From a virus: a stretch of DNA of 54,212 nt. Below are positions 14,048 to 47,955 of this stretch, piece after piece (within the stretch, counting starts at the first letter, position 1; each line of letters begins with the position of its first letter). The notes beneath the pieces are model-generated. The model was not told the DNA's origin, did no database searches, and saw nothing but the letters and a program-made list of their open reading frames with translations. A program made the translations under genes and the position numbers. The stretch lies in IMG/VR virus record IMGVR_UViG_3300003478_000003, positions 21,244 to 75,455 of that record; one strand, written 5' to 3'.

Positions 14048-14076
14048 ATTATAGCAGAAAAGTGTAGAAATTACAA
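14048..14076 (-). promoter_or_regulatory. sigma70-type promoter (TTGTAA-N17-TATAAT, extended TGC) before gene 43
   Basis: A perfect -10 box with an extended TGn is preceded at 17 bp by a partial -35. Exactly six bases separate the -10 box and the polymerase ATG, the same spacing as at 7158, 19745 and 53466. The -35 overlaps the stop of the dehydrogenase gene. Confidence 0.55.
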
Positions 14077-15159
14077 GCCTTTTACCTTACTATCTACCAT
14101 TTCTTTAGCAACTTGTGTAGTTGGTTTGTCTTCTTCTTGACTGGTTTTAAGTATATCATACGCTTTTTCATGTAGTGCTAATAATTTTGGCTTTACCATT
14201 GGATCATCCCATTCTATATCAAGTGTTGTTGTTATATCATGCGTTATATTGGATGCGGCACTAATAAAAATCACACCGCCGGCATTAGAAAGATAATCGG
14301 GAACATATAATATACCCTCTTTATGTAATATATCTCCATCATTAGTTGTGCGTAATTGATTATTTGCTCCACCACATATAGCTTTGCTTTTAAAAGTTTT
14401 AATAAAGTCTGGAGTAATTGTGCCGCCTAATGCACAAGGCATATATACATCTGTAGCAATATCGTGTATATCGTTATCAGTTTCACTCCATATTAATTCA
14501 AAATCAGAATGAGTATTTAAGTGTTGTAATGCTGTTCTTAAATTCCTAAATGCAGCTTTGCGTATGTCTGTAGCATAAACCTTAACTGGGTGTTCTGATA
14601 AGAAGTTAATTAATCTGCTACCTACTTTGCCTAACCCAACTACCGAAAATGATTTGCCAGTCCAATTAACTTTACTAGTATCGTCTAATACTCTTAATAG
14701 TCCTTTTGTAGCACAGTATAAACCATATGCTGTGGCCCATCCAGAATCTTGACCACCAAATCCCAATACATATTGTGTATGTTTGTGTATTTCATCTAAA
14801 TCATTTACATTAGTTCCTACATCGCCAGCACCATAATATGTGCCTGCTGTATAGTCCAATACTTCTGCAAATGATCTCCACAAGTCAGGAGATTTTGCTG
14901 TGTTAGCGTTTATAGTAGATTTACCACCACCAAAATGTAATCCTGCTAAGGCATTTTTATAAGTCATACCTTTTGATAAACGCAATGCGTCATAACGTTG
15001 CTCTTCATAACCAGCATACTTAAGATAGCGACACCCGCCTAAAGCGGGTCCTAGTTTAGTGTTATGAATCGCTACTATAGCATCCAGGCCAGTTGTATCG
15101 TCAGTAGCACGTAATACTCGCTCGTGCGAACCAATCGGTATCTCTCTAATGTTTAACAC
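14071..15159 (-). CDS. Leu/Val/Phe-type amino acid dehydrogenase
   Basis: 362 residues, the usual length for leucine dehydrogenases, which reversibly deaminate branched-chain amino acids with NAD. The conserved block GPALGGCRYL, RLSKGMTYKNALAGLHFGGGK carries Lys68 (substrate) and Lys80 (catalytic). The Rossmann motif GLGKVG is at 175-180, followed by KVYATDI. CGGANNQL and DYLSNAGGV are family signatures. It starts with GTG behind AGGGAG. Placed between DNA polymerase and a DsbA-like gene, it is an auxiliary metabolic gene. Choice of leucine, valine or phenylalanine cannot be read here. Confidence 0.9.
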   Translation of the reverse strand: MLNIREIPIGSHERVLRATDDTTGLDAIVAIHNTKLGPALGGCRYLKYAGYEEQRYDALRLSKGMTYKNALAGLHFGGGKSTINANTAKSPDLWRSFAEVLDYTAGTYYGAGDVGTNVNDLDEIHKHTQYVLGFGGQDSGWATAYGLYCATKGLLRVLDDTSKVNWTGKSFSVVGLGKVGSRLINFLSEHPVKVYATDIRKAAFRNLRTALQHLNTHSDFELIWSETDNDIHDIATDVYMPCALGGTITPDFIKTFKSKAICGGANNQLRTTNDGDILHKEGILYVPDYLSNAGGVIFISAASNITHDITTTLDIEWDDPMVKPKLLALHEKAYDILKTSQEEDKPTTQVAKEMVDSKVKGL

Positions 15160-17855: not shown

Positions 17856-19685
17856 CTACATATTGGCGTGCATTGCCGCCATGTGCTTCTTATATTTCTT
17901 CGTGCCTTTTTTATGCGGACTCTTACCTTCTAAAGCATTAGCAATACTGCTACTATGCTCTGGCTTTTCTTCCTCATTCAAACTATCGTCTAAATCCCAA
18001 GGACCCCAATGCCCTTGTTTTAACATATTAGCAAGACCTTTATGATGTTCATATCTAGCAAAAGCACCTTTTGTTTCTTCAACACCGCCTAGTTTATAAT
18101 ATTGTTCCTTACGCATTACAATATTATTACCATTGGCTTGATCAAACACTACATCACCCATCTCAGTCCATGCGTGTGGGAATCTGCGTCCTTCTAATTT
18201 GCCTTGGCCACGCACTAATGCATGAACTAATGTTGTATTGTCTATCAACATTTCTTCTGTATCCATCAAAGCACGGCCTGCTTTACTAAAGCAATCACCA
18301 CAAGCATCTTCTGTAATTGTAGCAAGTCCTTCACTAAACCCTGATTGTTGGTCCATCCAATCCAATGCTTCTCTATTTGTAACTGGTGTTGCTAACCAAC
18401 GTTGCATACTATTATATGCTTTTTTCACACGATCTTCATTCTCTGAATTTTCTGAATTATCTATTACATAAAAATCATTACGGCCAAATAACATTTGGAA
18501 ATTTCCAACATTTTCTTGGGCCATTTTCCATCCCTTGTTTAATAATTTTTCTGGAACAGAGCGTTCTGGGCGTTGCATGTTTCGTCCTTGCGCCGTTTCA
18601 AGATTGGTATTAACAAATATCATTCGTGTTTCATATCCAATATCTTCTAAATCTTTCTTTGCTTTTGCGATTTTCTCATAATCTTTAGCAGTACCATCAA
18701 TAATAAGTCCTAGTCTACCATCAAGATAATTACCTCTACGAGTATTTGTTAATTCTTTAGCACGACCACGTTGAACATCCCTATCTGCTTGTTCTTCATC
18801 AGGCATTTTAGGATCTAAATCGTGTTTAACCATTAAGTATTCTAATGCTTGATCTGTATTAACTACTTTAAGTCCACTGCCACCAAGCATTGCTCGTGAC
18901 ATATAACTCTTGCCTGAACCAGGGCCACCAGCCATAAACACCGCTTTAAAAATATGCGGATCATTTACACCTTCAGTAAGTTCTTTTTTAGGTTCTTTAT
19001 GGTCTATATACGCCTGTATAATTTTATCATCTATATCGTGTAAACGTTCCCAATCTGGATCGTCTACATACTCAATACCTGCTTCGCGATCTGCTTTCAT
19101 ATCGCCTTCGCGTAACTTCGGGGTAACTTGTGCTAACCACTCATCTCGTGATATACCAAGATCACCAGGCTTACCTAAATCATCTACTCTAATAGCATCT
19201 ATAATTCTGTCTGCTCTGATATCTGAACCACTTCGTAATGCTCTGCCTTTATTAGCAACAAATGGATCTTCTGCCGGGTCATCATCCCAAATCTCATCTT
19301 CCATATCAATACGTATAATGGAAATGTCTTTATCTGTATCACGAAACTCCCAAGCCATTTTGCCTGCCCAGTTTAATGCATCTTCTGGATCATCAAATGC
19401 AAATATACCTGCTTCTTCGTTATATCTACTACCACCTGGGCCTTTAATCCATAAACTAGGCTGGAATTGTAGCAATCCTTTTTGCTTAATGCTAGGAACG
19501 TTCTTAGTAAATGTAGCATGATACAAATACTTTGGCATTGTTTCGTCGCCCGCCTCATAGATGTCTTTGATAAAGTTTTTATATACCATATTATCAGCAG
19601 AATAACCTGTCTCATATTTGGATTTGCGTTTATAACTGCGCCGATTTTTTAATACATTACGACTGACAAGATCATGTAGTTTCAT
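17856..19685 (-). CDS. three-domain fusion: ADP-ribosyltransferase-like, P-loop kinase, papain-like
   Basis: 609 residues from the ATG at 19685, chosen because a late-type promoter lies five bases upstream. About residues 50-165 resemble ADP-ribosyltransferase/KptA-type folds (KYLYHATFTKNVPSIKQKGL, then EAGIFAFDDPEDALNWA). About 245-430 is a zeta-toxin or polynucleotide-kinase-like P-loop domain (MAGGPGSGKSYMSRAM, VVNTDQALEYLM, GLIIDGTAKD). About 455-575 looks like a papain or transglutaminase-type domain with a possible triad Cys (ACGDCFSKA), His (RFPHAWTE) and Asp (VVFDQANGNN). It could be injected to modify host proteins or RNA. All activities are inferred. Confidence 0.65.
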   Translation of the reverse strand: MKLHDLVSRNVLKNRRSYKRKSKYETGYSADNMVYKNFIKDIYEAGDETMPKYLYHATFTKNVPSIKQKGLLQFQPSLWIKGPGGSRYNEEAGIFAFDDPEDALNWAGKMAWEFRDTDKDISIIRIDMEDEIWDDDPAEDPFVANKGRALRSGSDIRADRIIDAIRVDDLGKPGDLGISRDEWLAQVTPKLREGDMKADREAGIEYVDDPDWERLHDIDDKIIQAYIDHKEPKKELTEGVNDPHIFKAVFMAGGPGSGKSYMSRAMLGGSGLKVVNTDQALEYLMVKHDLDPKMPDEEQADRDVQRGRAKELTNTRRGNYLDGRLGLIIDGTAKDYEKIAKAKKDLEDIGYETRMIFVNTNLETAQGRNMQRPERSVPEKLLNKGWKMAQENVGNFQMLFGRNDFYVIDNSENSENEDRVKKAYNSMQRWLATPVTNREALDWMDQQSGFSEGLATITEDACGDCFSKAGRALMDTEEMLIDNTTLVHALVRGQGKLEGRRFPHAWTEMGDVVFDQANGNNIVMRKEQYYKLGGVEETKGAFARYEHHKGLANMLKQGHWGPWDLDDSLNEEEKPEHSSSIANALEGKSPHKKGTKKYKKHMAAMHANM

Positions 19686-19744: not shown

Positions 19745-20809
19745 ATGAGAATAGAAACAGACATTAAACTAGACTACAAAGACGTCTTACTAAAACCTAA
19801 ACGTTCTACGCTATCCAGTAGGCGTAGCGTTACGATAGAACGTGACTTTACATTTAGACACTGGAATGACACTAGAGAATCATGGTCAGGTGTTCCTATT
19901 ATGGCGTCCAACATGGATGGTGTAGGTACCTTTTCAATGGCAAACGTATTGCAAAACTACAATATGTTAACGATTATTAAAAAGCATTACACAATAGAAG
20001 ATTGGGAAAATGCAGTAGGGCATGGTATGAGTTTAAGTAATATAGCAGTTAGCACAGGAACCAATGCTATATTTGATCCAGATGCAGAAGATTACAAAAA
20101 AGCACAAGAAATACTTACACGTTGGCCTGATATTAAATTTATTTGTATTGATGTTGCCAATGGCTATCAGCAAAACTTTTCAGATTTTGTGAGAGAAGTG
20201 AGAGAAAGGTTTCCTAAAAAGATTATCATAGCAGGTAATGTTATTACAGGTGAAATGACTGAGCAATTATGTATTGCTGGTGCCGATATTGTAAAATGCG
20301 GTATCGGGCCTGGCTCAGTATGCACAACACGAATAATGACCGGTGTTGGTATGCCACAATTAAGTGGTATTATGGAATGTGCTGATGCCGCACATGGATT
20401 AGGCGGGCATATTATAGCAGATGGTGGTTGCACAGAGCCTGGTGATGTTGCTAAAGCATTTGGTGCCGGCGCTGACTTTGTTATGTTAGGTGGAATGCTT
20501 GCTGGACATGATGAGAGTGAACTATCTGAAGTTGCAGGGCAATATGAGTTTTACGGTATGAGTTCCAATCGCGCAATGCAGGAACACGGCACACGTAAAG
20601 ATGGATATAGAAGTTCTGAAGGGCGTCATATTAGATTAGATGCTCGTGGCCCAGTAGAACACACTGTAGTAGAAATACTTGGTGGTGTGCGTAGTGCTTG
20701 CACATATATTGGTGCTCGTCGTATTAAAGATATACCCAAATCTGCAACATTTGTCTTAGTTAATACTACATATAATACTGTTTACTTACAAAACACAGTA
20801 GGAGATTAA
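19745..20809 (+). CDS. guaC: GMP reductase
   Basis: 354 residues, about the length of E. coli GuaC (347). It converts GMP to IMP and ammonia with NADPH. Similarity to GuaC is visible throughout: FKDVLL-type start ([15 protein letters not shown]), [34 protein letters not shown] with catalytic Cys193, [15 protein letters not shown] and [20 protein letters not shown]. No CBS domains are present, unlike most IMP dehydrogenases. It opens a two-gene plus-strand operon. The enzyme would return guanine nucleotides to the IMP/adenine side, or recycle host GMP. Confidence 0.93.
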
Positions 20810-32605: not shown

Positions 32606-34003
32606 TTATAAAAGGCCTTCTCTTTTCAGATCTTCCTGCGTAGCATTAATACTTGCGTGTAATACTACCATCATATGATCTATATTCTCTTTAGTTAATG
32701 TCAATGGTGGCGAAATAACATTTAAATGACCAATTGGCCTAATGATTACACCACGGTCTTGTGCGTGATTTGCTATCCTACTGCCAATATCTACACTTGC
32801 TGGAAATAATTCTTTAGTATGGCGTGTCTTAACAAATTCCATACACAACATATAATGACTACCACGTACATCACCAACCATGTAATGTCCACGCATATGT
32901 TGTAATTGTTCTTCAAAGTATGGACCAACTTCACGTACATGTTCAAGTATTTTCTCGTCTTCCATTATTTTAATGTTAGCAAGTCCAGCGGCACACGCAA
33001 CAGGATGTCCTGCGTATGTAAAGCCGTGTGTAAATAATGCGCCTTCTGCTTGAGCGCCATCACTGATTACATCGTAAATTTTGTCTGATATTATAGTTGC
33101 TGATAATGGAATGTAACCTGATGAGATGCCTTTAGCACTTGTTATAATGTCAGGCACTATATCAAATATTTCTTCGGATGCAAACCAATGTCCTAAACGT
33201 CCAAAACCTGTTACTACTTCATCTGATATGTATAACATATCAAACTTTTCACAAACTTCTTTCATGCGTTTGTGATAACCTGGAGGGGCAACAATAACAC
33301 CACCTGCGCCCATAATAGGTTCAGCAATAAATGCCGCCACATTTTCCGATCCAAGTTCTAATATTTTTTTCTCAAATTCTTTTACTAATTCATTACAAAA
33401 TATTTCTAATTGCTCTTTAGTTGGAGGACGGTCACCTTCTATACCTCTATAACAATTAGGTGCTGATATATAATATACTAAATCAGGAGCAATATCAAAA
33501 CCAATGTGATCATGCTGTGTACCTGTTAGTGTCATTGCCATGTATGTGCTACCATGGTATGAGTCTAAACGTGAGATAATTTTCTTTTTGTTTGGCTTCC
33601 CACGTTTATTATTATAAAAATGTATAATACGTATTGCTGTATCATTTGCTATTGAACCACCAGTGCCAAAGAATACATGATTTAAGTCACCAGGTGCTAT
33701 CTCCGCTAATTTTGCCGCTAATTCTGCGGCGGGTGGTGTAACTGTAGGACCAAATGTTGCGTAATAAGCAATCTCGTCTATTTGATCAGCAATTGCTTTC
33801 TTCATTGCTTCGTGTGCGTAACCAATGTTTACACACCATAAGCCAGCAATACCATCTAAATACTGATTACCATCGCTATCATATACATAATTACCAAGAG
33901 AGTTTGCCATTACTAATGATTTTTCATGATTAGCAAAATTTGTCCATGGGTGTATGTTATGATCTATATCTTTTTGTTGTAAATCTTTTGTGTTATATTT
34001 CAC
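32606..34003 (-). CDS. class III aminotransferase
   Basis: 465 residues, the usual length for omega-amino acid:pyruvate aminotransferases, which use PLP to move amino groups from compounds such as beta-alanine or taurine to pyruvate. Signatures are FFGTGGSIANDTAIRI, SRLDSYHGSTYMAMTLTG, AAFIAEPIMGAGGV, YISDEVVTGFGRLG and the PLP lysine in SAKGISSGYIPLSA. All key residues are present. It is coupled to the FAH gene (TAATG), and both lie between fibre genes and lysis genes. Substrate is not readable. Confidence 0.92.
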   Translation of the reverse strand: MKYNTKDLQQKDIDHNIHPWTNFANHEKSLVMANSLGNYVYDSDGNQYLDGIAGLWCVNIGYAHEAMKKAIADQIDEIAYYATFGPTVTPPAAELAAKLAEIAPGDLNHVFFGTGGSIANDTAIRIIHFYNNKRGKPNKKKIISRLDSYHGSTYMAMTLTGTQHDHIGFDIAPDLVYYISAPNCYRGIEGDRPPTKEQLEIFCNELVKEFEKKILELGSENVAAFIAEPIMGAGGVIVAPPGYHKRMKEVCEKFDMLYISDEVVTGFGRLGHWFASEEIFDIVPDIITSAKGISSGYIPLSATIISDKIYDVISDGAQAEGALFTHGFTYAGHPVACAAGLANIKIMEDEKILEHVREVGPYFEEQLQHMRGHYMVGDVRGSHYMLCMEFVKTRHTKELFPASVDIGSRIANHAQDRGVIIRPIGHLNVISPPLTLTKENIDHMMVVLHASINATQEDLKREGLL

Positions 34004-34761
34004 TATGCTATCCTTTGATCAATAATTAAGGTGTCCTCAAACCCCTCAATATACATAGTAACTCTATCGCCATGCTTTAGATATAGTTCTGGTTTATCAT
34101 TGAATACTGCATTGCGTTCCATTAAGCAACCAAATCCATCCATACGCACAGAAGAACTTACTGTTCCACTGCCAATTAATGTTCCTTCGCTTAATGTTCT
34201 AGTTTTTGCCGCGTGTTCTATCAAGTCAGCAAAACTAAATGTCATCTGTTGTGCTGTATTTATTTTTCCAACACGTTCTTCATTTAACTCAATTATCATG
34301 TTTGCGTGTAATTTACAATCTGTATGAAACATTCCTTTTATTTGTAGTGTTTCATGGCAATATTTGCCTAACGCACTATGAGGTTTGCTTTGGAAAAATC
34401 CAAATCCTTTTGCTAATTCTGCGGGTATTAATTTACGTAAACTAATGTCGTTTATAATAGTAATATACTTAATGTGTTCATATGCTTCGTCAGCAGTAGT
34501 GCCTAACGGAACTTCATCAACAATAACACCTACCTCTGCTTCAAAGTCTATTCCATATTCCTCAGGGAATGGATGTATGTTTTCATTCCACAATAAAAAT
34601 TTGTCACTAACGCCTTGATACATTAATGGATCCCAATTAAAACTATCGGGCATTTTTGCTCCACGAGCCGCACGTAATCTCTCCATATGTATAAGATATG
34701 CACTACCATCACAAAATTGTGTTATATTTAGATCACTCGTCAGTGTGTGTTGTATTTTCAT
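34003..34761 (-). CDS. fumarylacetoacetate hydrolase family protein
   Basis: 252 residues. FAH-family enzymes cleave or hydrate beta-keto acids, for instance the last step of tyrosine breakdown. Conserved parts are FEAEVGVIVDEVPLGT (metal-binding Glu), ITIINDISLR (metal Asp), and LIGSGTVSSSVR near the C-terminus. The N-terminal region is shorter than eukaryotic FAH. The start overlaps the VOC gene by 29 bases, and the stop is coupled to the aminotransferase. Together they look like a small catabolic operon. Confidence 0.85.
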   Translation of the reverse strand: MKIQHTLTSDLNITQFCDGSAYLIHMERLRAARGAKMPDSFNWDPLMYQGVSDKFLLWNENIHPFPEEYGIDFEAEVGVIVDEVPLGTTADEAYEHIKYITIINDISLRKLIPAELAKGFGFFQSKPHSALGKYCHETLQIKGMFHTDCKLHANMIIELNEERVGKINTAQQMTFSFADLIEHAAKTRTLSEGTLIGSGTVSSSVRMDGFGCLMERNAVFNDKPELYLKHGDRVTMYIEGFEDTLIIDQRIA

Positions 34762-35176
34762 TTTGCATATTACATGTTATTTCTAATCGTAAATTGTTTG
34801 GATCAAAAAAGTATATACTATATATCCAATCATCGTGATTAGTTGGGCCTATAACATCTAGTCCTCTTGATGTTAATTCAGCAAACCAAGCATCTACATT
34901 CTCAACAGTACCAACATCAAATGCAAAATGTACTACCCAATCTTCGCAATCTGTTGTAGTTGCTTCGCCATCGCCTAAATCAAAAAATGCAATGCAACTT
35001 TTGTCTGGCATTTGGAAAAATATGTGTTTGTATGGAGCATATGCTCCGGTACTTGGAACGTGATCTTTTTCTATAGTATGGACGTGGGGTAACCCCAATA
35101 CATTAGTATAAAATTCTATTGTTTCATCTGCATCTCTACACTTCCATGCAAAATGGTGTAGTTGCTTTAATTTCAT
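34733..35176 (-). CDS. VOC/glyoxalase-type protein
   Basis: 147 residues. The vicinal-oxygen-chelate fold is visible as two beta-alpha-beta units: LHHFAWKCRDADETIEFYTNV, then WVVHFAFDV and a C-terminal IYFFDPNNLRLEI. Metal ligands would be His8 (LHHFAW), His88 in the second half and Glu in LRLEI. Family members include glyoxalases and ring-cleaving dioxygenases. With FAH and an aminotransferase, a role in aromatic amino-acid breakdown is possible. The holin gene ends one base before its start. Confidence 0.82.
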   Translation of the reverse strand: MKLKQLHHFAWKCRDADETIEFYTNVLGLPHVHTIEKDHVPSTGAYAPYKHIFFQMPDKSCIAFFDLGDGEATTTDCEDWVVHFAFDVGTVENVDAWFAELTSRGLDVIGPTNHDDWIYSIYFFDPNNLRLEITCNMQNENTTHTDE

Positions 35177-37298: not shown

Positions 37299-37306
37299 TA
37301 TTTATT
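37299..37306 (-). promoter_or_regulatory. late-type promoter AATAAATA before the spanin-like pair
   Basis: The box overlaps the end of the gene at 37305. The expected start is the A five bases on (37293), giving a short leader with AGGAG. Confidence 0.5.
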
Positions 37307-38087
37307 ACTTCATAGGTACGCGGGCGTTAATTCTGAGTTGTTGTAACTGATCTTTAATATTTTGCTCTTTTGCTAGAAAAGAGTCATATTGTTCTGGGGT
37401 AACTGGAAGTGTGTTGTGTAATTCTTCCATCGTTAGTGTTTTACTGCTTTTATAATGTTTAAATGACCAATTATCAATGCCTGTTAGTTTTTCAACACCT
37501 GTTAACATTTCAGATAATACATCTTTGAATGTATCTTTACGTTCAAACTCTACAAATACAACGTAATCACCATCAATATTTTCACTTGAAATATTATCAG
37601 CATCTATAACATCTGTATAACCACGCTCAACAAATGACATTAAGTCCTTTGCGGCATCATTATTTTTAACTTCCATTGCTAATACAATAACATCCTTATC
37701 TTCACCTAATTTGCTTTTATGTTTATCTACAAAAATTGTAGAATTTACAAGATCTGCCAAATCTAAAGCATTGAGGTCTTCATTAATTGGAGATTCGCCT
37801 AAATGAGTTAAGTCACTTGAAAAATCACCACCAATTTCTTGTGTTGTTATTGTATCTGTAACAGGTATAGTAGGATCTGCAGATATTACTTTTCTTGCTG
37901 TTGTATTTGATTTTGGATCGTTTGTTGTTATAGTAGTTATGTCTGGTTCCCCATCTACTCTTTTTGTAACAGTCTTTTTTGTAGGCCGTAAATTATCACG
38001 TATTTTAGCAATATTTGCTTTTTCTTTTATTTTCTTTTTAGCTACATTACTTAAATTATCTTCTAAAATTTCTCTAAAATTTTTCAT
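37305..38087 (-). CDS. hypothetical protein, 260 residues
   Basis: The N-terminal third is basic and low-complexity (MKNFREILEDN, then VAKKKIKEKANIAKI), followed by a Thr-rich linker. The C-terminal 150 residues have an ordered alpha/beta pattern (KDVIVLAMEVKNNDAAKDLM, GDYVVFVEFERKDTFKDVL). It is coupled to the upstream gene by TAATG. A virion-associated role is likely from context. The N-terminus resembles that of the protein at 16857. Confidence 0.6.
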   Translation of the reverse strand: MKNFREILEDNLSNVAKKKIKEKANIAKIRDNLRPTKKTVTKRVDGEPDITTITTNDPKSNTTARKVISADPTIPVTDTITTQEIGGDFSSDLTHLGESPINEDLNALDLADLVNSTIFVDKHKSKLGEDKDVIVLAMEVKNNDAAKDLMSFVERGYTDVIDADNISSENIDGDYVVFVEFERKDTFKDVLSEMLTGVEKLTGIDNWSFKHYKSSKTLTMEELHNTLPVTPEQYDSFLAKEQNIKDQLQQLRINARVPMK

Positions 38088-40486: not shown

Positions 40487-41233
40487 TTACGCTAGTGTCC
40501 ATACTGTATCACTTGATCCATTAGCAATAATCTCTCTAGTCTTTTCAGATTTTAGTCCTGTAATCTGGATAATTGGTCTTGGGAAATTACTAGCATTCGC
40601 TGTGGCGTGTGGTGCATTTGCCCAATCAAAGATATGTGCCTCGCCAGCTTTCCATCTTTCATAGATAAAATTACCATACATATAAAACTGTCCTGGTCTC
40701 CAATCATCTAAGAAAAATGCAATACGACATATTTGTTCTGGATCATCAATACATCTATCCCATAGCTTATCAATATGTAAGTTAAACATTTGACCTGTTA
40801 ATTGAACATGGGCTCTATATTTTAACTCGTCTTTACTGCCTATTACCCCAAAGTGTTCTTTCATTTTAACAAGCATTGGATAATCTTCTAACTCATCTTT
40901 CATATTTGTAAGCATAAGTTTTTTAGGATCTCCGCCTCCTTGTTCAATATCGTATTCTTCTTGTTTTAGCATTGGAGATTCGTCTTCTTTATCTCCATAG
41001 AATTTACGTGATTCCCAATTAATTGCTTTAGTTGAATTTTCAACTAATCTATCTCTATCTTCTTTCCAAAGTTCAGGATTATCAAATCGGCCTAATACCT
41101 TAAACCATTCACCTTCTTTATCTTTAACGTTATCATCAAAATGATATTCGCTATGTGCTACTGTCCAATCCCAGTTCGAATCGAATTCAGATGGGTCTTT
41201 TAAGGTTTTAGACCAATCTGTTTTGTGTATCAT
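40487..41233 (-). CDS. 2OG-Fe(II) oxygenase-like protein
   Basis: 248 residues, paralogue of 38828. Likely ligands are His153 and Asp155 (NLHIDKLW), His209 (APHATANAS) and Arg219 (FPRPIIQITG). CRIAFFLDDWRPGQFYMYG aligns with the same part of its paralogue. The start overlaps the tctA stop (ATGA). Two such enzymes in one operon with a P-loop protein suggest related substrates. Confidence 0.72.
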   Translation of the reverse strand: MIHKTDWSKTLKDPSEFDSNWDWTVAHSEYHFDDNVKDKEGEWFKVLGRFDNPELWKEDRDRLVENSTKAINWESRKFYGDKEDESPMLKQEEYDIEQGGGDPKKLMLTNMKDELEDYPMLVKMKEHFGVIGSKDELKYRAHVQLTGQMFNLHIDKLWDRCIDDPEQICRIAFFLDDWRPGQFYMYGNFIYERWKAGEAHIFDWANAPHATANASNFPRPIIQITGLKSEKTREIIANGSSDTVWTLA

Positions 41234-42738
41234 GTGTAATCAAGTCCTTTGTCTTTTCTTACTAAACTATTTATGAATATGCCTAATGCTATTACAATAC
41301 ATACAAGGAAGATAGGATGATTATAAATGTTAAATAATTCTCCCCATCTAAATCCTTCCATCGACGTTAAGCCTGGCTTCCATTGTTTGTAACCGTACAG
41401 TTGTAAGGTTCCCCAGAAGTATTCATCTATTTTAAATGCTACAACGTATGCAACTAGAATTGCCGGTCTACTAATGTTATATATTTTACATACAACACCA
41501 ATAGCACTTAATATAGCAAGTAAGGCCAAGTCTTCCCAGCCACCTGTATATTGCATATTAGCATAAACAATTACTGCTAAAATAAATGTAGCATAAATCC
41601 AAAACGGAACTTCTAATATTTTAAGAATATATTTGTATAAGACTATACTCAACAATGCTACACCAACTGTTCCAAATATATAACCAAATGCCAGTGAATT
41701 TGTAAATTGTAAATCTTGTAGTAAACTTGGTGTGCCAATCTCCATACCGAAGTACATACAGATTGCCATAACCATAGCCGCAAATGGTGCCGCAGGAATA
41801 CCAAACAAACAAGCAGGTATCATACTAGATACTTTCTGTGCATTGTTGGCTCCTTCACAGCCTAGTAATCCTACAGGATTACCTTCACCAAATGGAACTT
41901 CTTGATCTTCTTCTTTGTGTGCGGCTTTGGTTGCACCGTATGCTAAGAAGTCACCTACTGCTCCTCCTACGCCTGGCAATAAGCCAGTTACGAATCCAAT
42001 TAGTCCACCTCTAACCATATCTTTCCAATGTCGTTTGCAATCACCAAAACCTTGTTTCAGTCCTGTCCAATAATTTCCTTCTAACGGTGGTGCCGCTGAT
42101 TTTAATTTCTTTCTGAATCCGTCTAATAATTCAGGAACTCCGAATAAGCCTGATAGTAGAACCACCATGCCAATTCCATTTTGTAAATATTCCCAACCGA
42201 ATGTCAGTCTAGGATTACTTACAACATCTTCTCCTACCATACCTACTGCTAATCCGAATATGATTGCACAGATACTTAAGAAAACATTTTTACTTGCAAC
42301 AAAGCCTACACAGGCTAGTGCCATTGTCATAAAGCCCAGAAACTCCGGGCGTCCAAATAATACTATAATTTTTCCATAGTATGGAAGTAAAAAGAAAGTT
42401 AATGCCGCAAATACAACACCATTAAATGTTGAATCAGCAATAGCAATTCCCATTGCTCTAGCGGCTTGACCTTTCTTTGCCATAGGATAACCGTCAATAA
42501 CACATGCCGCAGTAGTACTAGCGCCAGGAATACCAGTAAGAATACTTGTATAACTATCTGCACTCGCACAACTTGCCACGATAGCAGTTAAAAAGACCAA
42601 CCCCAAATAAGGGTCGGCCATAAAATATGCTCCCATGGTAAAGACAGTTATCAGAGCAGTAGTTACACCTGCGATAGGAATAATACCAACTAACATTCCA
42701 TAACAAGTGCCAACTAATGCCCAGATAACATATTCCAT
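41230..42738 (-). CDS. tctA: tripartite tricarboxylate transporter, large membrane subunit
   Basis: 502 residues, the usual TctA length, with about 11-12 TM helices. Family signatures are the N-terminal GMLVGIIPIAGVTTALI, SILTGIPGASTTAACVIDG and a second GFVTGLLPGVGGAVGDFLAYG. TctA forms the channel of a secondary transporter for carboxylates such as citrate. It is complete, which is unusual for a phage. The TctC-like gene follows upstream on the strand; no TctB is seen. Confidence 0.93.
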   Translation of the reverse strand: MEYVIWALVGTCYGMLVGIIPIAGVTTALITVFTMGAYFMADPYLGLVFLTAIVASCASADSYTSILTGIPGASTTAACVIDGYPMAKKGQAARAMGIAIADSTFNGVVFAALTFFLLPYYGKIIVLFGRPEFLGFMTMALACVGFVASKNVFLSICAIIFGLAVGMVGEDVVSNPRLTFGWEYLQNGIGMVVLLSGLFGVPELLDGFRKKLKSAAPPLEGNYWTGLKQGFGDCKRHWKDMVRGGLIGFVTGLLPGVGGAVGDFLAYGATKAAHKEEDQEVPFGEGNPVGLLGCEGANNAQKVSSMIPACLFGIPAAPFAAMVMAICMYFGMEIGTPSLLQDLQFTNSLAFGYIFGTVGVALLSIVLYKYILKILEVPFWIYATFILAVIVYANMQYTGGWEDLALLAILSAIGVVCKIYNISRPAILVAYVVAFKIDEYFWGTLQLYGYKQWKPGLTSMEGFRWGELFNIYNHPIFLVCIVIALGIFINSLVRKDKGLDYT

Positions 42739-42748
42739 AGTGCTTTCC

Positions 42749-43804
42749 TTAGTCTAAAAGTTCAGGTTTGTAGATTGATGGGAAGCCATACGCTTCTTGG
42801 TTCCACTTCACCGCATCTCTTAGTGCTTTCTCTGTAATCAAAGATTTAAGAGCCGCTAATAGACTATCACCATCTTGAATCCAAGGATAAACACCTGTCT
42901 TAGCATAAATTTCTGCTGATGCAACTGGATCATTGATCATTGCAGTTACAGCCGATTTAACTTTTGCCGCATTTGGATTACCTTTGTTCATCCAAAGTGA
43001 TTTTTGGATTGCGTCACGCCAGTTACGAGTAAGTTTATATGCTTGATATAAATCACCTGATGGTGCTTCGCCCCATAATCTTTCATACACATCTTCAAAT
43101 TGTGTATTAGGGAAGTTAGGGTCATCCATTTGTATATTGTTTTCTAAGTCTAGGATACCGTGAGTGAACCATAGTTCATTACCTTCGATATCTGTATAGA
43201 AACGCTTCCATGCCGCTGGTGATTCACGTGCGATATCAAATTCACCATTTTGGAAACCTAGACGCTTTTCACCGCCTGATACACCGTTAACCCATACAAC
43301 ACGTTCTCTCCAACATGTCAAGTAGGCATCGATTGAACCGTTTTCTTGTGGGCCACAGATTAACATTGCCGCCGCGGCCGCATCTGGTTCAAAACCTGAC
43401 CCGCCTGCGATTGTCCAAGTGCCTGATTTTTCATCTTTACCTTCTTGTTTACCAAGAACGATATCATTATTCATTGAACCAATTAGTTCATAATCAAAAT
43501 AATTGTATCTAACTTTATCTAATAGAAACGATACACCGTTGCCACCGTGTGCAACCATGATTGTTTTATCATCAAAACGTAGACTATCGTGGAACTTGTT
43601 AAATCCAGGAATATCACGTGCGCCTGGAATGTGACGTACTACTACTGGTTCGCCTAGGAACTTTTCTAAGTTCTTAGCAATGATTTCACTCCAAACTGAA
43701 GTGCCCTTACCAGGTGCCTGTGGCACGATTAGGGTATAATCGGCTAACGCCGATGTTGCAATACCTATTGAAAGTATTGCCGAGATTAATAGTTTTTTAA
43801 ACAT
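42749..43804 (-). CDS. tctC: TctC-like periplasmic solute-binding protein
   Basis: 351 residues. A signal peptide (MFKKLLISAILSIGIATSALA) is followed by the Bug/TctC fold: LIVPQAPGKGTSVW, EPVVVRHIPGARDIPGFNKF, TIMVAHGGNG. It would bind a carboxylate in the periplasm and hand it to TctA. The mature protein holds four Cys and some long loops, more than usual. GGAG precedes the ATG. It contains an Ala run encoded by GCGGCCGC. Confidence 0.88.
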   Translation of the reverse strand: MFKKLLISAILSIGIATSALADYTLIVPQAPGKGTSVWSEIIAKNLEKFLGEPVVVRHIPGARDIPGFNKFHDSLRFDDKTIMVAHGGNGVSFLLDKVRYNYFDYELIGSMNNDIVLGKQEGKDEKSGTWTIAGGSGFEPDAAAAAMLICGPQENGSIDAYLTCWRERVVWVNGVSGGEKRLGFQNGEFDIARESPAAWKRFYTDIEGNELWFTHGILDLENNIQMDDPNFPNTQFEDVYERLWGEAPSGDLYQAYKLTRNWRDAIQKSLWMNKGNPNAAKVKSAVTAMINDPVASAEIYAKTGVYPWIQDGDSLLAALKSLITEKALRDAVKWNQEAYGFPSIYKPELLD

Positions 43805-46133: not shown

Positions 46134-46811
46134 TTATTTCTTTGACCAAACAAAATACATTCTTTCTTTGTAATCGTTTCTCAAATCTAATACATCTACT
46201 TTTAAAAAGTCAGCACAGTTAATTATAAATGTTGGTGTCCATTCATAAAAAGATATCCAACTGGATTCTGTTGGTATATGCGTTAGTCCTGGGTTTACTC
46301 TAAAATATATTTTACCACCAGGCGTTGTTAATTTTACTATATGCTCTAACTCTTTTAATATTTTATCAGTTGATCCAAAGTTAATTGAACCTAAGCACAT
46401 AACTACATCAAATGTTTCAGAAGGATGATAATCTAAAATACTTACTTTAATATCTGCGTGACTATTATATGGGTCAATACCTATTAGGTTGTCTATTTTA
46501 CTTTTAAACTCGTTATAGCCACAGCCAACGTCTAACACACTACGTGGTTTTAAACTATTAATCTCATCCACTAATGCTAATCCACTGTGCTTATATTTTT
46601 TAGTTTCAGACTGCCATACATTACTAAAGTATTTTTCCAATACTTTGTCATCAATTTTATTAACTAATTCGCCAGTATTGTCAAAACTAACATCCTCAAC
46701 CCATACGTCAAACATACCTTGTATAGACTGCCGTAGTTTGTGATCATCTCGCAAGATTTGAGGAGATGTTTTAAACATATCCTCTAATGCATTAAGTATT
46801 TTTATATTCAT
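46134..46811 (-). CDS. SAM-dependent methyltransferase
   Basis: 225 residues of class I type. Motif I is SVLDVGCGYNEF, motif II LIGIDPYN, motif IV FDVVMCLGSINFG and motif V LTTPGGKIYFRVNPG. The first 60 residues are helical and extra. It overlaps the tryptophan dioxygenase gene by 4 bases. The substrate is unknown. Confidence 0.78.
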   Translation of the reverse strand: MNIKILNALEDMFKTSPQILRDDHKLRQSIQGMFDVWVEDVSFDNTGELVNKIDDKVLEKYFSNVWQSETKKYKHSGLALVDEINSLKPRSVLDVGCGYNEFKSKIDNLIGIDPYNSHADIKVSILDYHPSETFDVVMCLGSINFGSTDKILKELEHIVKLTTPGGKIYFRVNPGLTHIPTESSWISFYEWTPTFIINCADFLKVDVLDLRNDYKERMYFVWSKK

Positions 46812-47323
46812 TTATCCCACAAATTTTTATCAACTGTTTGTTTTAAATACTTTACTCCAGATGTGCCTCCAGTCCCAGGCTTATCCCCTATAATGCGTTC
46901 TACAGTTTTCATATGATTAAACTGCCATTTTTTAAACGCATTTTCTACATCGCATAACGCTTCACGTGGAAATAAACTTGTATTTGGACAACATTTGCTG
47001 GGTAAATCTCTCAATAACTGTTCTACTTCTATATATTGTGTTGATTGTTTGCCTGACGCTGAGCCTAGTGTGCTTCTAAATCTCTCGTAGTCTTGTGGGG
47101 TAAGTGTTGCTATAATGTCCCACAATGTATTTAAGTGATTGAATATTTTGGCAATGCGTTTTAGATCTGGATTAGTAGCAATGCTTAATTCGCGTATTAA
47201 TACTTTAAACCATAATTCGGATGCTTGGTGTGCAACTATAAACATCAGTTCATTGCGATCCGATGTTATTGTGTTTTGTGAATTTAATATTGTATCTAGA
47301 TCTAAATAATCGCCATAATTCAT
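46808..47323 (-). CDS. kynA: compact tryptophan 2,3-dioxygenase
   Basis: 171 residues from the ATG at 47323 (ATGA overlap). TDO opens the indole ring of tryptophan to N-formylkynurenine with heme and O2. Key residues are kept: His32 in MFIVAHQASELWFK, Arg83 in YERFRSTLGSASG, heme ligand His137 in FNHMKTVERIIG, and the substrate loop PGTGGTSGVKYLK. Bacterial TDO is about 280 residues; here the middle helical part of about 100 residues is replaced by about 25. It may be a minimal active form, as all heme and substrate parts remain. Confidence 0.8.
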   Translation of the reverse strand: MNYGDYLDLDTILNSQNTITSDRNELMFIVAHQASELWFKVLIRELSIATNPDLKRIAKIFNHLNTLWDIIATLTPQDYERFRSTLGSASGKQSTQYIEVEQLLRDLPSKCCPNTSLFPREALCDVENAFKKWQFNHMKTVERIIGDKPGTGGTSGVKYLKQTVDKNLWDK

Positions 47324-47955
47324 ATTACGCACACTTTAATATCTTCTGCCTTATAACTTTGGTGTACACCTTCTATAGGACACTTTATATTTAACAAATT
47401 GCACGTATCAAAACTGTCTATCGCATTAAATTTTGCTTTATTAACTGCCATAAATGCTTTAATATTTTTATTTTGTAAAGCAATCTCTGCCTTCATCTTT
47501 TTCTCGTTTTCATACCATTCATAACTAGGATACGAGATTTCAAATCCGCCTGCCTGCATCCACCAATCATAGCATTTCTTGTTTGTTCTATACGTCAAAA
47601 CTATTTTGCTATTAGGCCATTCTGTTTTTATATATTGTAAATTGTGTGCTAATGTGTGGCTTTTAATAATCCTGTATTTGTCTCTGCGTAAAATACCACT
47701 AAATGCTTTATTAAACTCTGCTTCGTTTTGTTTTTTATTGTGCTTATCTATGCTATCAAACCAATTACCAAATTCCATACCTGGATCAAAATAAGAGCCA
47801 CTGTGTTTTGCTTTATAATCACTAAGTTGTGGCCCGCCTAAATATTCACGGTGGGGAGCGGCGTCTGTTTGATCTATATCAACAGATTCGTATATATGAG
47901 CGGCAACACTACTCCAACGTGATCCTGGCGCTCCTACTAAGAAAATATAACTCAT
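47320..47955 (-). CDS. sulfotransferase-like protein
   Basis: 211 residues. The 5' phosphosulfate-binding loop is VGAPGSRWSS at the start, and RIIKSHTL with IVLTYRTNKKCYDWWM matches the 3' phosphate region of sulfotransferases. Such proteins would move sulfate from PAPS to a sugar or protein. The pattern is common in marine T4-like phages. ATGA overlaps on both sides. Confidence 0.7.
   Translation of the reverse strand: MSYIFLVGAPGSRWSSVAAHIYESVDIDQTDAAPHREYLGGPQLSDYKAKHSGSYFDPGMEFGNWFDSIDKHNKKQNEAEFNKAFSGILRRDKYRIIKSHTLAHNLQYIKTEWPNSKIVLTYRTNKKCYDWWMQAGGFEISYPSYEWYENEKKMKAEIALQNKNIKAFMAVNKAKFNAIDSFDTCNLLNIKCPIEGVHQSYKAEDIKVCVI

What the first reader, a model, noticed from the sequence alone, without database searches (positions are those of the whole stretch)
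17856..19685. Three-domain fusion: ART-like, P-loop kinase, papain-like
One 609-residue late protein seems to join an ADP-ribosyltransferase or KptA-like domain, a zeta-toxin or polynucleotide-kinase-like domain, and a Cys-His-Asp papain-type domain. This combination is not one I know. The kinase and ART parts could act on RNA ends or proteins together, and the cysteine domain could process the polyprotein or cut a host target. Each domain call is from motifs only.
Basis: inference. Interest (0 to 1): 0.7.

Follow-up and report, generated by a model that had tools for sequence, protein, structure and literature searches.

The report
Phage effector polyprotein with cut sites
A giant marine T4-like phage makes one protein holding three different enzymes, with a motif like the phage head protease's cut site at the edges of each enzyme, which suggests that the string is packed into the virus head, cut into separate enzymes and injected into the host with the DNA.

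Summary
The ORF is real (609 aa, conserved in relatives) and the three domain calls largely hold. Residues 51-193 have an ADP-ribosyltransferase fold (Tpt1/KptA catalytic lobe). Residues 239-431 are a P-loop kinase (Pfam Zeta_toxin/AAA_33; nearest solved sequence T4 polynucleotide kinase). Residues 463-567 are an undescribed Cys-His-Asp family whose closest, non-significant, folds are papain-like glutamine amidohydrolases. All five L/I-x-E motifs, the cleavage signature of T4-type prohead proteases, lie at module edges and none inside a fold. In 12 related proteins the motif is depleted inside folds (3 against 25.5 expected); L/I-x-D is not. Relatives gain or lose whole modules at these sites. 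The kinase usually occurs alone behind a short leader ending LxE|G, like a T4 capsid-targeting sequence, often after a T4-type late promoter. The phage encodes an S77 prohead protease. Best reading: a late, head-packaged 'polyvalent' effector polyprotein, cut by the prohead protease and injected with the DNA. Packaging, cutting and substrates are inferred, not shown. New variant of a known kind.

The parts
17856..19685 (-). 609-aa effector polyprotein ORF
   Evidence: conserved in L001-L008
19691..19698 (-). T4-type late promoter-like AATAAATA, 5 nt before the ATG
   Evidence: same place in L003, L007, L128, L132, L171, L172
19554..19685 (-). N-terminal basic leader, residues 1-44, predicted disordered, ending ..NFIKDIYE|A (possible capsid-targeting propeptide)
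   Evidence: pLDDT about 40; conserved leader end
19554..19562 (-). putative prohead-protease site IYE44|A
19107..19535 (-). ADP-ribosyltransferase-fold module, residues 51-193 (Tpt1/KptA-like catalytic lobe)
   Evidence: alignment
19107..19115 (-). putative prohead-protease site LRE193|G; extra modules are inserted here in L003, L007, L128
18972..19106 (-). linker, residues 194-238, mostly low confidence
18972..18980 (-). putative prohead-protease site LTE238|G
   Evidence: same (L/I/M/V)xE|G in 65 of 66 distinct kinases
18393..18971 (-). P-loop kinase module, residues 239-431 (Walker A GGPGSGKS 253-260; D278, R368 conserved)
18309..18317 (-). putative prohead-protease site ITE459|D
   Evidence: conserved in L003, L007, L128
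17985..18299 (-). Cys-His-Asp module, residues 463-567 (C465, H504, D515), papain-like/Gln-amidohydrolase-like
17973..17981 (-). putative prohead-protease site LNE571|E
17859..17972 (-). C-terminal tail, residues 572-609, ending ALE|GKSPHKKGTKKYKKHMAAMHANM, a Lys-rich cassette seen in other phage proteins
16857..17837 (-). next gene; starts MNIKDILTE|KTE.., also leader-like; possibly a second packaged protein
   Evidence: inference

Best explanation
This is a late-expressed polyvalent effector polyprotein. An N-terminal leader brings it into the prohead core. The phage's S77 (T4 gp21-type) prohead protease cuts after L/I-x-E, after residues 44, 193, 238, 459 and 571. This frees an ART-fold enzyme, a P-loop kinase, a Cys-His-Asp amidohydrolase-like enzyme and a Lys-rich tail. 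The freed enzymes stay in the head and are injected with the DNA, as T4 Alt and the T4 internal proteins are, to modify host molecules at the start of infection. Shown: the modules, the sites at their edges, depletion of the motif inside folds, module shuffling at the sites, late-promoter-like sequence and the S77 gene. Inferred: packaging, cutting, injection, and that ART and Cys modules act on host proteins; the kinase substrate is unknown.
For: All 5 L/I-x-E motifs lie 0-6 residues from a domain edge, none inside, 4.0 expected inside by composition. In 12 related proteins: 3 inside against 25.5 expected, ratio 0.12; other third residues 0.58-1.36, L/I-x-D 1.12; housekeeping enzymes of the same phage 47 against 43.8. 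Stand-alone kinases: 66 of 66 have E|G and 65 of 66 an aliphatic P3; 64 of 67 complete ORFs are 300 aa or less. Even the distant Straboviridae kinases S13_193 and 65p142 begin with CTS-like leaders. Whole modules inserted at LRE| in L007 and L128; ART-SOD-tail in L129; ART-NT5C-Cys in L130; stand-alone ART in L132. S77 protease and gp23 in the 322-kb relative; capsid protein N-term reads QYLSE|AATAG, protease C-term AIYE|G and YLKE|G. S77 also in HTVC008M, Melnitz, Atu_ph07. ATAAATA upstream in 38 of 56 stand-alone kinases against 3.3 in shuffles. Precedent: gp21 L/I-X-E specificity and 10-19-residue CTS (PMC9026906); T4 Alt cut at ITE-6 and LTE-619 (PMC5694885).
Against: No protein-level data. 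The leader here is 44 residues, longer than T4's 10-19. ITE459|D and LNE571|E have acidic P1' residues, and E193 is the last residue of a helix. The homologs are related, so the depletion counts are not independent. In stand-alone kinases depletion is weaker (43 against 89). Across the relative's proteome, L/I-x-E-[AGS] is only about 2-fold denser near N-termini. The kinase set was found partly with a pattern containing EG, so the 66 of 66 is partly selected; P3 is not.
Confidence: 0.62

Rival explanations
1. Intact multifunctional injected (polyvalent) protein: packaged and injected whole, with the L/I-x-E motifs only flexible-linker coincidences.
For: Known polyvalent proteins can be transferred uncut (phage N4 vRNAP, ArdC, TraC1; PMC5512222). 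Linkers favour charged residues.
Against: L/I-x-D is not depleted inside folds while L/I-x-E is; sites mark every module edge and are where modules are gained or lost; stand-alone kinases keep the LxE|G leader.
Confidence: 0.2
2. RNA-end healing enzyme: KptA-like domain removes 2'-phosphate and PNK-like kinase phosphorylates 5'-OH ends of RNAs cut by host nucleases.
For: Nearest solved relatives are Tpt1/KptA and T4 PNK; L113 joins the kinase to an NT5C-type phosphatase.
Against: No RNA ligase in the 322-kb relative, the weak hit is a DNA ligase; Tpt1 N-lobe missing; T4 PNK Arg38 position is Leu here; kinase is mostly alone without ART.
Confidence: 0.1
3. Self-processing polyprotein: the Cys-His-Asp domain is a papain-type protease that cuts the chain itself.
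For: Papain-like active-site arrangement.
Against: Relatives with the same sites lack this domain (L129, L062, L113, Atu_ph07); sites fit the S77 prohead protease consensus; best fold matches are amidohydrolases and deamidases.
Confidence: 0.05

Closest known systems
Polyvalent proteins of phages and conjugative elements (Iyer et al. 2017, PMC5512222)
   Same: Several unrelated enzymatic domains (ART, ParB-like, GNAT, others) in one chain, variable architectures, predicted injection with DNA.
   Different: Processing there is ascribed to embedded zincin or assemblin-like peptidases; here the candidate cutter is the separate S77 prohead protease acting at module edges. That paper's main text, as searched, does not use the words papain, P-loop kinase, NTAQ1 or transglutaminase.
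T4 internal head proteins and Alt (CTS plus gp21 processing)
   Same: Late, leader ending in L/I-x-E, S77 protease in the phage, an ART among the cargo; Alt is cut at both ends.
   Different: T4 cargo is one protein per gene; here several enzymes are strung on one chain. Alt is an R-S-E ART (PMC5512222); this one is Tpt1-like in fold.
Tpt1/KptA RNA 2'-phosphotransferases
   Same: Fold of the catalytic ART lobe.
   Different: No N-terminal lobe; only a short sequence match.
Zeta toxins / T4 polynucleotide kinase (AAA_33)
   Same: P-loop kinase core, Walker A, catalytic Asp and lid Arg.
   Different: PNK acceptor Arg38 not conserved; no antitoxin gene looked for; substrate unknown.
NTAQ1, SseI, protein-glutaminase, PMT-C3 (papain-like glutamine amidohydrolases)
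   Same: Cys on a helix start, His and Asp on strands; closest folds found.
   Different: No sequence similarity found; Z below 8; a family of its own, without a match in Pfam, NCBIfam or (beyond E 0.05) PHROGs.

Membership tests
Polyvalent protein | Two or more biochemically disparate domains in one polypeptide | tested here: met
Polyvalent protein | Domains recombined in many architectures | tested here: met
Polyvalent protein | Transferred into the host with the DNA | not testable with these tools
   needs virion and infection proteomics
T4-type CTS internal head protein | Short N-terminal leader ending in L/I-x-E | tested here: inconclusive
   met for the stand-alone kinases; here the first site is at residue 44
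T4-type CTS internal head protein | Phage encodes an S77 prohead protease | tested here: met
T4-type CTS internal head protein | Late promoter | tested here: met
   one-mismatch AATAAATA
T4-type CTS internal head protein | Present and cleaved in virions | not testable with these tools
   the Atu_ph07 kinase protein is CDS 53, inside the virion-protein cluster CDS 31-76; its own detection could not be checked
ADP-ribosyltransferase superfamily | ART fold | tested here: met
ADP-ribosyltransferase superfamily | Complete NAD-binding/catalytic residue set | tested here: inconclusive
   H56 conserved; second and third residues not assigned
Tpt1/KptA | Two-lobed enzyme with the N-terminal lobe | tested here: not met
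   only chain residues about 86-183 align and only about 50 low-confidence residues precede
Zeta toxin (PF06414) | Profile match above gathering score | tested here: met
   42.8 bits against 22.3
Zeta toxin (PF06414) | UDP-GlcNAc-binding residues and antitoxin partner | not tested
   -
T4 polynucleotide kinase | Acceptor-binding Arg38 equivalent | tested here: not met
   Leu at that column of the profile alignment; role of Arg38 from general knowledge
Papain-like (Gln amidohydrolase) fold | Cys-His-Asp set | tested here: met
   C and H invariant, D 13 of 15
Papain-like (Gln amidohydrolase) fold | Significant fold match | tested here: inconclusive
   VIA Z 6.9, Foldseek best E 0.086

The most novel reading that the evidence does not exclude
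T4-like marine jumbo phages use their prohead protease to turn one translated chain into a set of head-packaged, injected enzymes, with protease sites serving as module borders for swapping cargo (ARTs, kinase, amidohydrolase, superoxide dismutases, phosphatase, GNAT, ParB-like), and the Cys-His-Asp module is a new protein glutamine amidohydrolase family.
Probability: 0.45. Interest if true: 0.78.

Novelty: new variant of a known kind. Interest (0 to 1): 0.62.

Why it matters
It suggests a simple sequence rule (L/I-x-E at domain edges, depleted inside folds) that could pick out head-packaged, injected proteins in uncultured phages. It would explain how a T4-like head carries many enzymes from one gene, and it puts a function class (packaged, injected kinase) on a hypothetical-protein family with at least 591 hits in viral contigs.

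Tried and rejected
Combined RNA-repair enzyme: no RNA ligase found, kinase mostly stand-alone, Tpt1 N-lobe and PNK Arg38 missing. Cys domain as the processing protease: same sites in relatives without it. Defence gene: no PADLOC match for P0001. Proteome-wide N-terminal enrichment of L/I-x-E-[AGS] was only about 2-fold, so it is not used as proof. A first in/out count failed because a gapped copy of the protein was read; redone. No meaningful PDB sequence match for the Cys family.

Full report
Observation. The ORF at 17856-19685 (-) encodes 609 aa. The window lies in a 75-kb IMG/VR virus record; an identical protein sits in a 322,647-bp contig (G001), and relatives at 79% and 68% identity exist. 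G001 carries a gp23 capsid protein and an S77 prohead protease, so this is a T4-like jumbo phage.

Domains. Kinase: Pfam Zeta_toxin E 5e-11 and AAA_33 E 5e-10; a profile of six homologs finds T4 polynucleotide kinase best among solved structures (E 4e-8) and zeta toxin at E 6e-4. ART: sequence gives only a weak KptA hint, but the predicted fold of residues 51-195 matches Tpt1/KptA (Foldseek E 5e-5, VIA Z 10.9 over 93 residues), followed by other ART families. Cys module: 15 homologs down to 23% identity keep C465, H488, R501, H504, W506, E508 and GPW 561-563, with D515 in 13 of 15. It also occurs as stand-alone ~120-aa proteins (L152, L158, L160, L161, L164) and in very large multidomain proteins (L143, L146, L153, L159). 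The closest folds are NTAQ1, then SseI, protein-glutaminase and PMT-C3, at Z 6.9 and below with no significant Foldseek hit, so the papain-like, glutamine-amidohydrolase-like reading is probable but not firm.

Modules are shuffled. The kinase is usually alone: 64 of 67 complete ORFs are 300 aa or less. It is also found in larger chains (L062, L113, L128, Atu_ph07). ART is alone in L132, L171, L172; with an Fe superoxide dismutase in L129 (Pfam E 1e-22); with an NT5C phosphatase and the Cys module in L130. L007 has an extra domain inserted exactly after LRE (..KLRE|SLDDKIFYHGS....VLEE|GDMKADR); a stand-alone ORF in L129 (2283-2720) looks like its counterpart and ends ..DIIE*. L003 and L128 have other inserts at the same place. 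The Cys module is joined to GNAT- and ParB-like regions in L009 and to a Cu/Zn superoxide dismutase and ParB domain in L143 (Pfam E 5e-40 for the dismutase; the GNAT and L009 ParB assignments are by eye, Pfam 0.19 for ParB).

Cut sites. T4 gp21 cuts after L/I-X-E, and T4 internal proteins carry 10-19-residue leaders called capsid-targeting sequences (PMC9026906); Alt is cut at both ends at ITE and LTE (PMC5694885). In P0001 all five L/I-x-E motifs lie at module edges: 44, 193, 238, 459, 571. Composition alone would put 4.0 of them inside the folds. Over 12 proteins, 3 are inside against 25.5 expected; with D in place of E the ratio is 1.12, and other residues give 0.58-1.36. Housekeeping enzymes of the same phage show 47 against 43.8. 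The relatives are not independent, so no P value is claimed; but proteins sharing only one or two modules (L129, L130, L062, L113, Atu_ph07, L143, L009) each show 0 inside. Edge placement also depends partly on my domain limits, and E193 ends a helix.

Leaders and timing. In 66 distinct kinases the residue before the conserved G[VLPI][NY]DPxIFKA is always E, with an aliphatic residue two before it in 65 of 66, behind leaders mostly 7-16 residues long and otherwise variable. The scan used a pattern containing EG, so E|G is partly selected; the aliphatic P3 is not. The distant Straboviridae kinases S13_193 and 65p142 start MNFKEFCQLDE|A and MKKFSEFIKLEE|K, so EG is not a fold requirement. ATAAATA lies within 70 nt upstream of 38 of 56 stand-alone kinases (shuffle mean 3.3), and AATAAATAC precedes this ORF. 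The capsid protein of G001 begins with a propeptide ending QYLSE|AATAG and the protease ends with AIYE|G and YLKE|G, the expected S77 sites by analogy.

Interpretation. The simplest account is a head-packaged polyvalent effector cut by the prohead protease. Polyvalent proteins are known (PMC5512222), with processing ascribed to embedded zincin or assemblin-like peptidases; packaged phage ARTs are common (PMC9503650). What appears new is a multi-enzyme chain whose module borders match the head protease's motif, and a motif-depletion signature. My literature searches found no description of it, but only open-access papers were searched. The Atu_ph07 kinase protein is CDS 53 by counting annotated CDS, inside a cluster (CDS 31-76) with 29 mass-spectrometry-identified virion proteins (PMC6102473); whether it is one of them could not be checked.

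Noticed in passing
L129:2723-6013 and L143:284-4525: Related polyproteins carry superoxide dismutases as modules: Fe/Mn type in L129 (Pfam E 1e-22), Cu/Zn type in L143 (E 5e-40). A packaged, possibly injected SOD would be unusual.
   Followed up: partly
window 46808-47332: Tryptophan 2,3-dioxygenase homolog (Pfam E 1.5e-43), about half the length of the profile, in a phage.
   Followed up: no
window 41230-42738, 42749-43804: TctA tricarboxylate transporter gene (Pfam E 1.4e-86) next to a protein with a signal-peptide-like start that may be its binding protein (no Pfam hit).
   Followed up: no
window 32606-34003, 34733-35176, 14071-15159, 19745-20809: Metabolic genes: class-III aminotransferase, glyoxalase, Glu/Leu/Phe/Val dehydrogenase, IMPDH/GMP reductase.
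   Followed up: no
G001 10-36 kb (L025, L026): Cluster of genes whose products start with leader-like M[KRL]xx..E (MKITEILVE|A, MKLVELFLAITE|G, MYLEELFE|A, MGFIKDLYE|S): candidate further head cargo.
   Followed up: partly
window 17859-17924; L009, L012-L014: Lys-rich cassette EGKSPHKKGTKKYKKHMAAMHA recurs at the end or inside of otherwise unrelated phage proteins that start with leader-like sequences.
   Followed up: partly
window 37305-38087: Protein starting MKNFREILEDN matches phrog_13138, a head-and-packaging virion structural family (E 1e-26).
   Followed up: no
L146, L153, L159: Very large proteins (1312-1745 aa, cut by contig ends) that also hold the Cys-His-Asp domain, with pentapeptide-like repeats in L146 by eye.
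   Followed up: no
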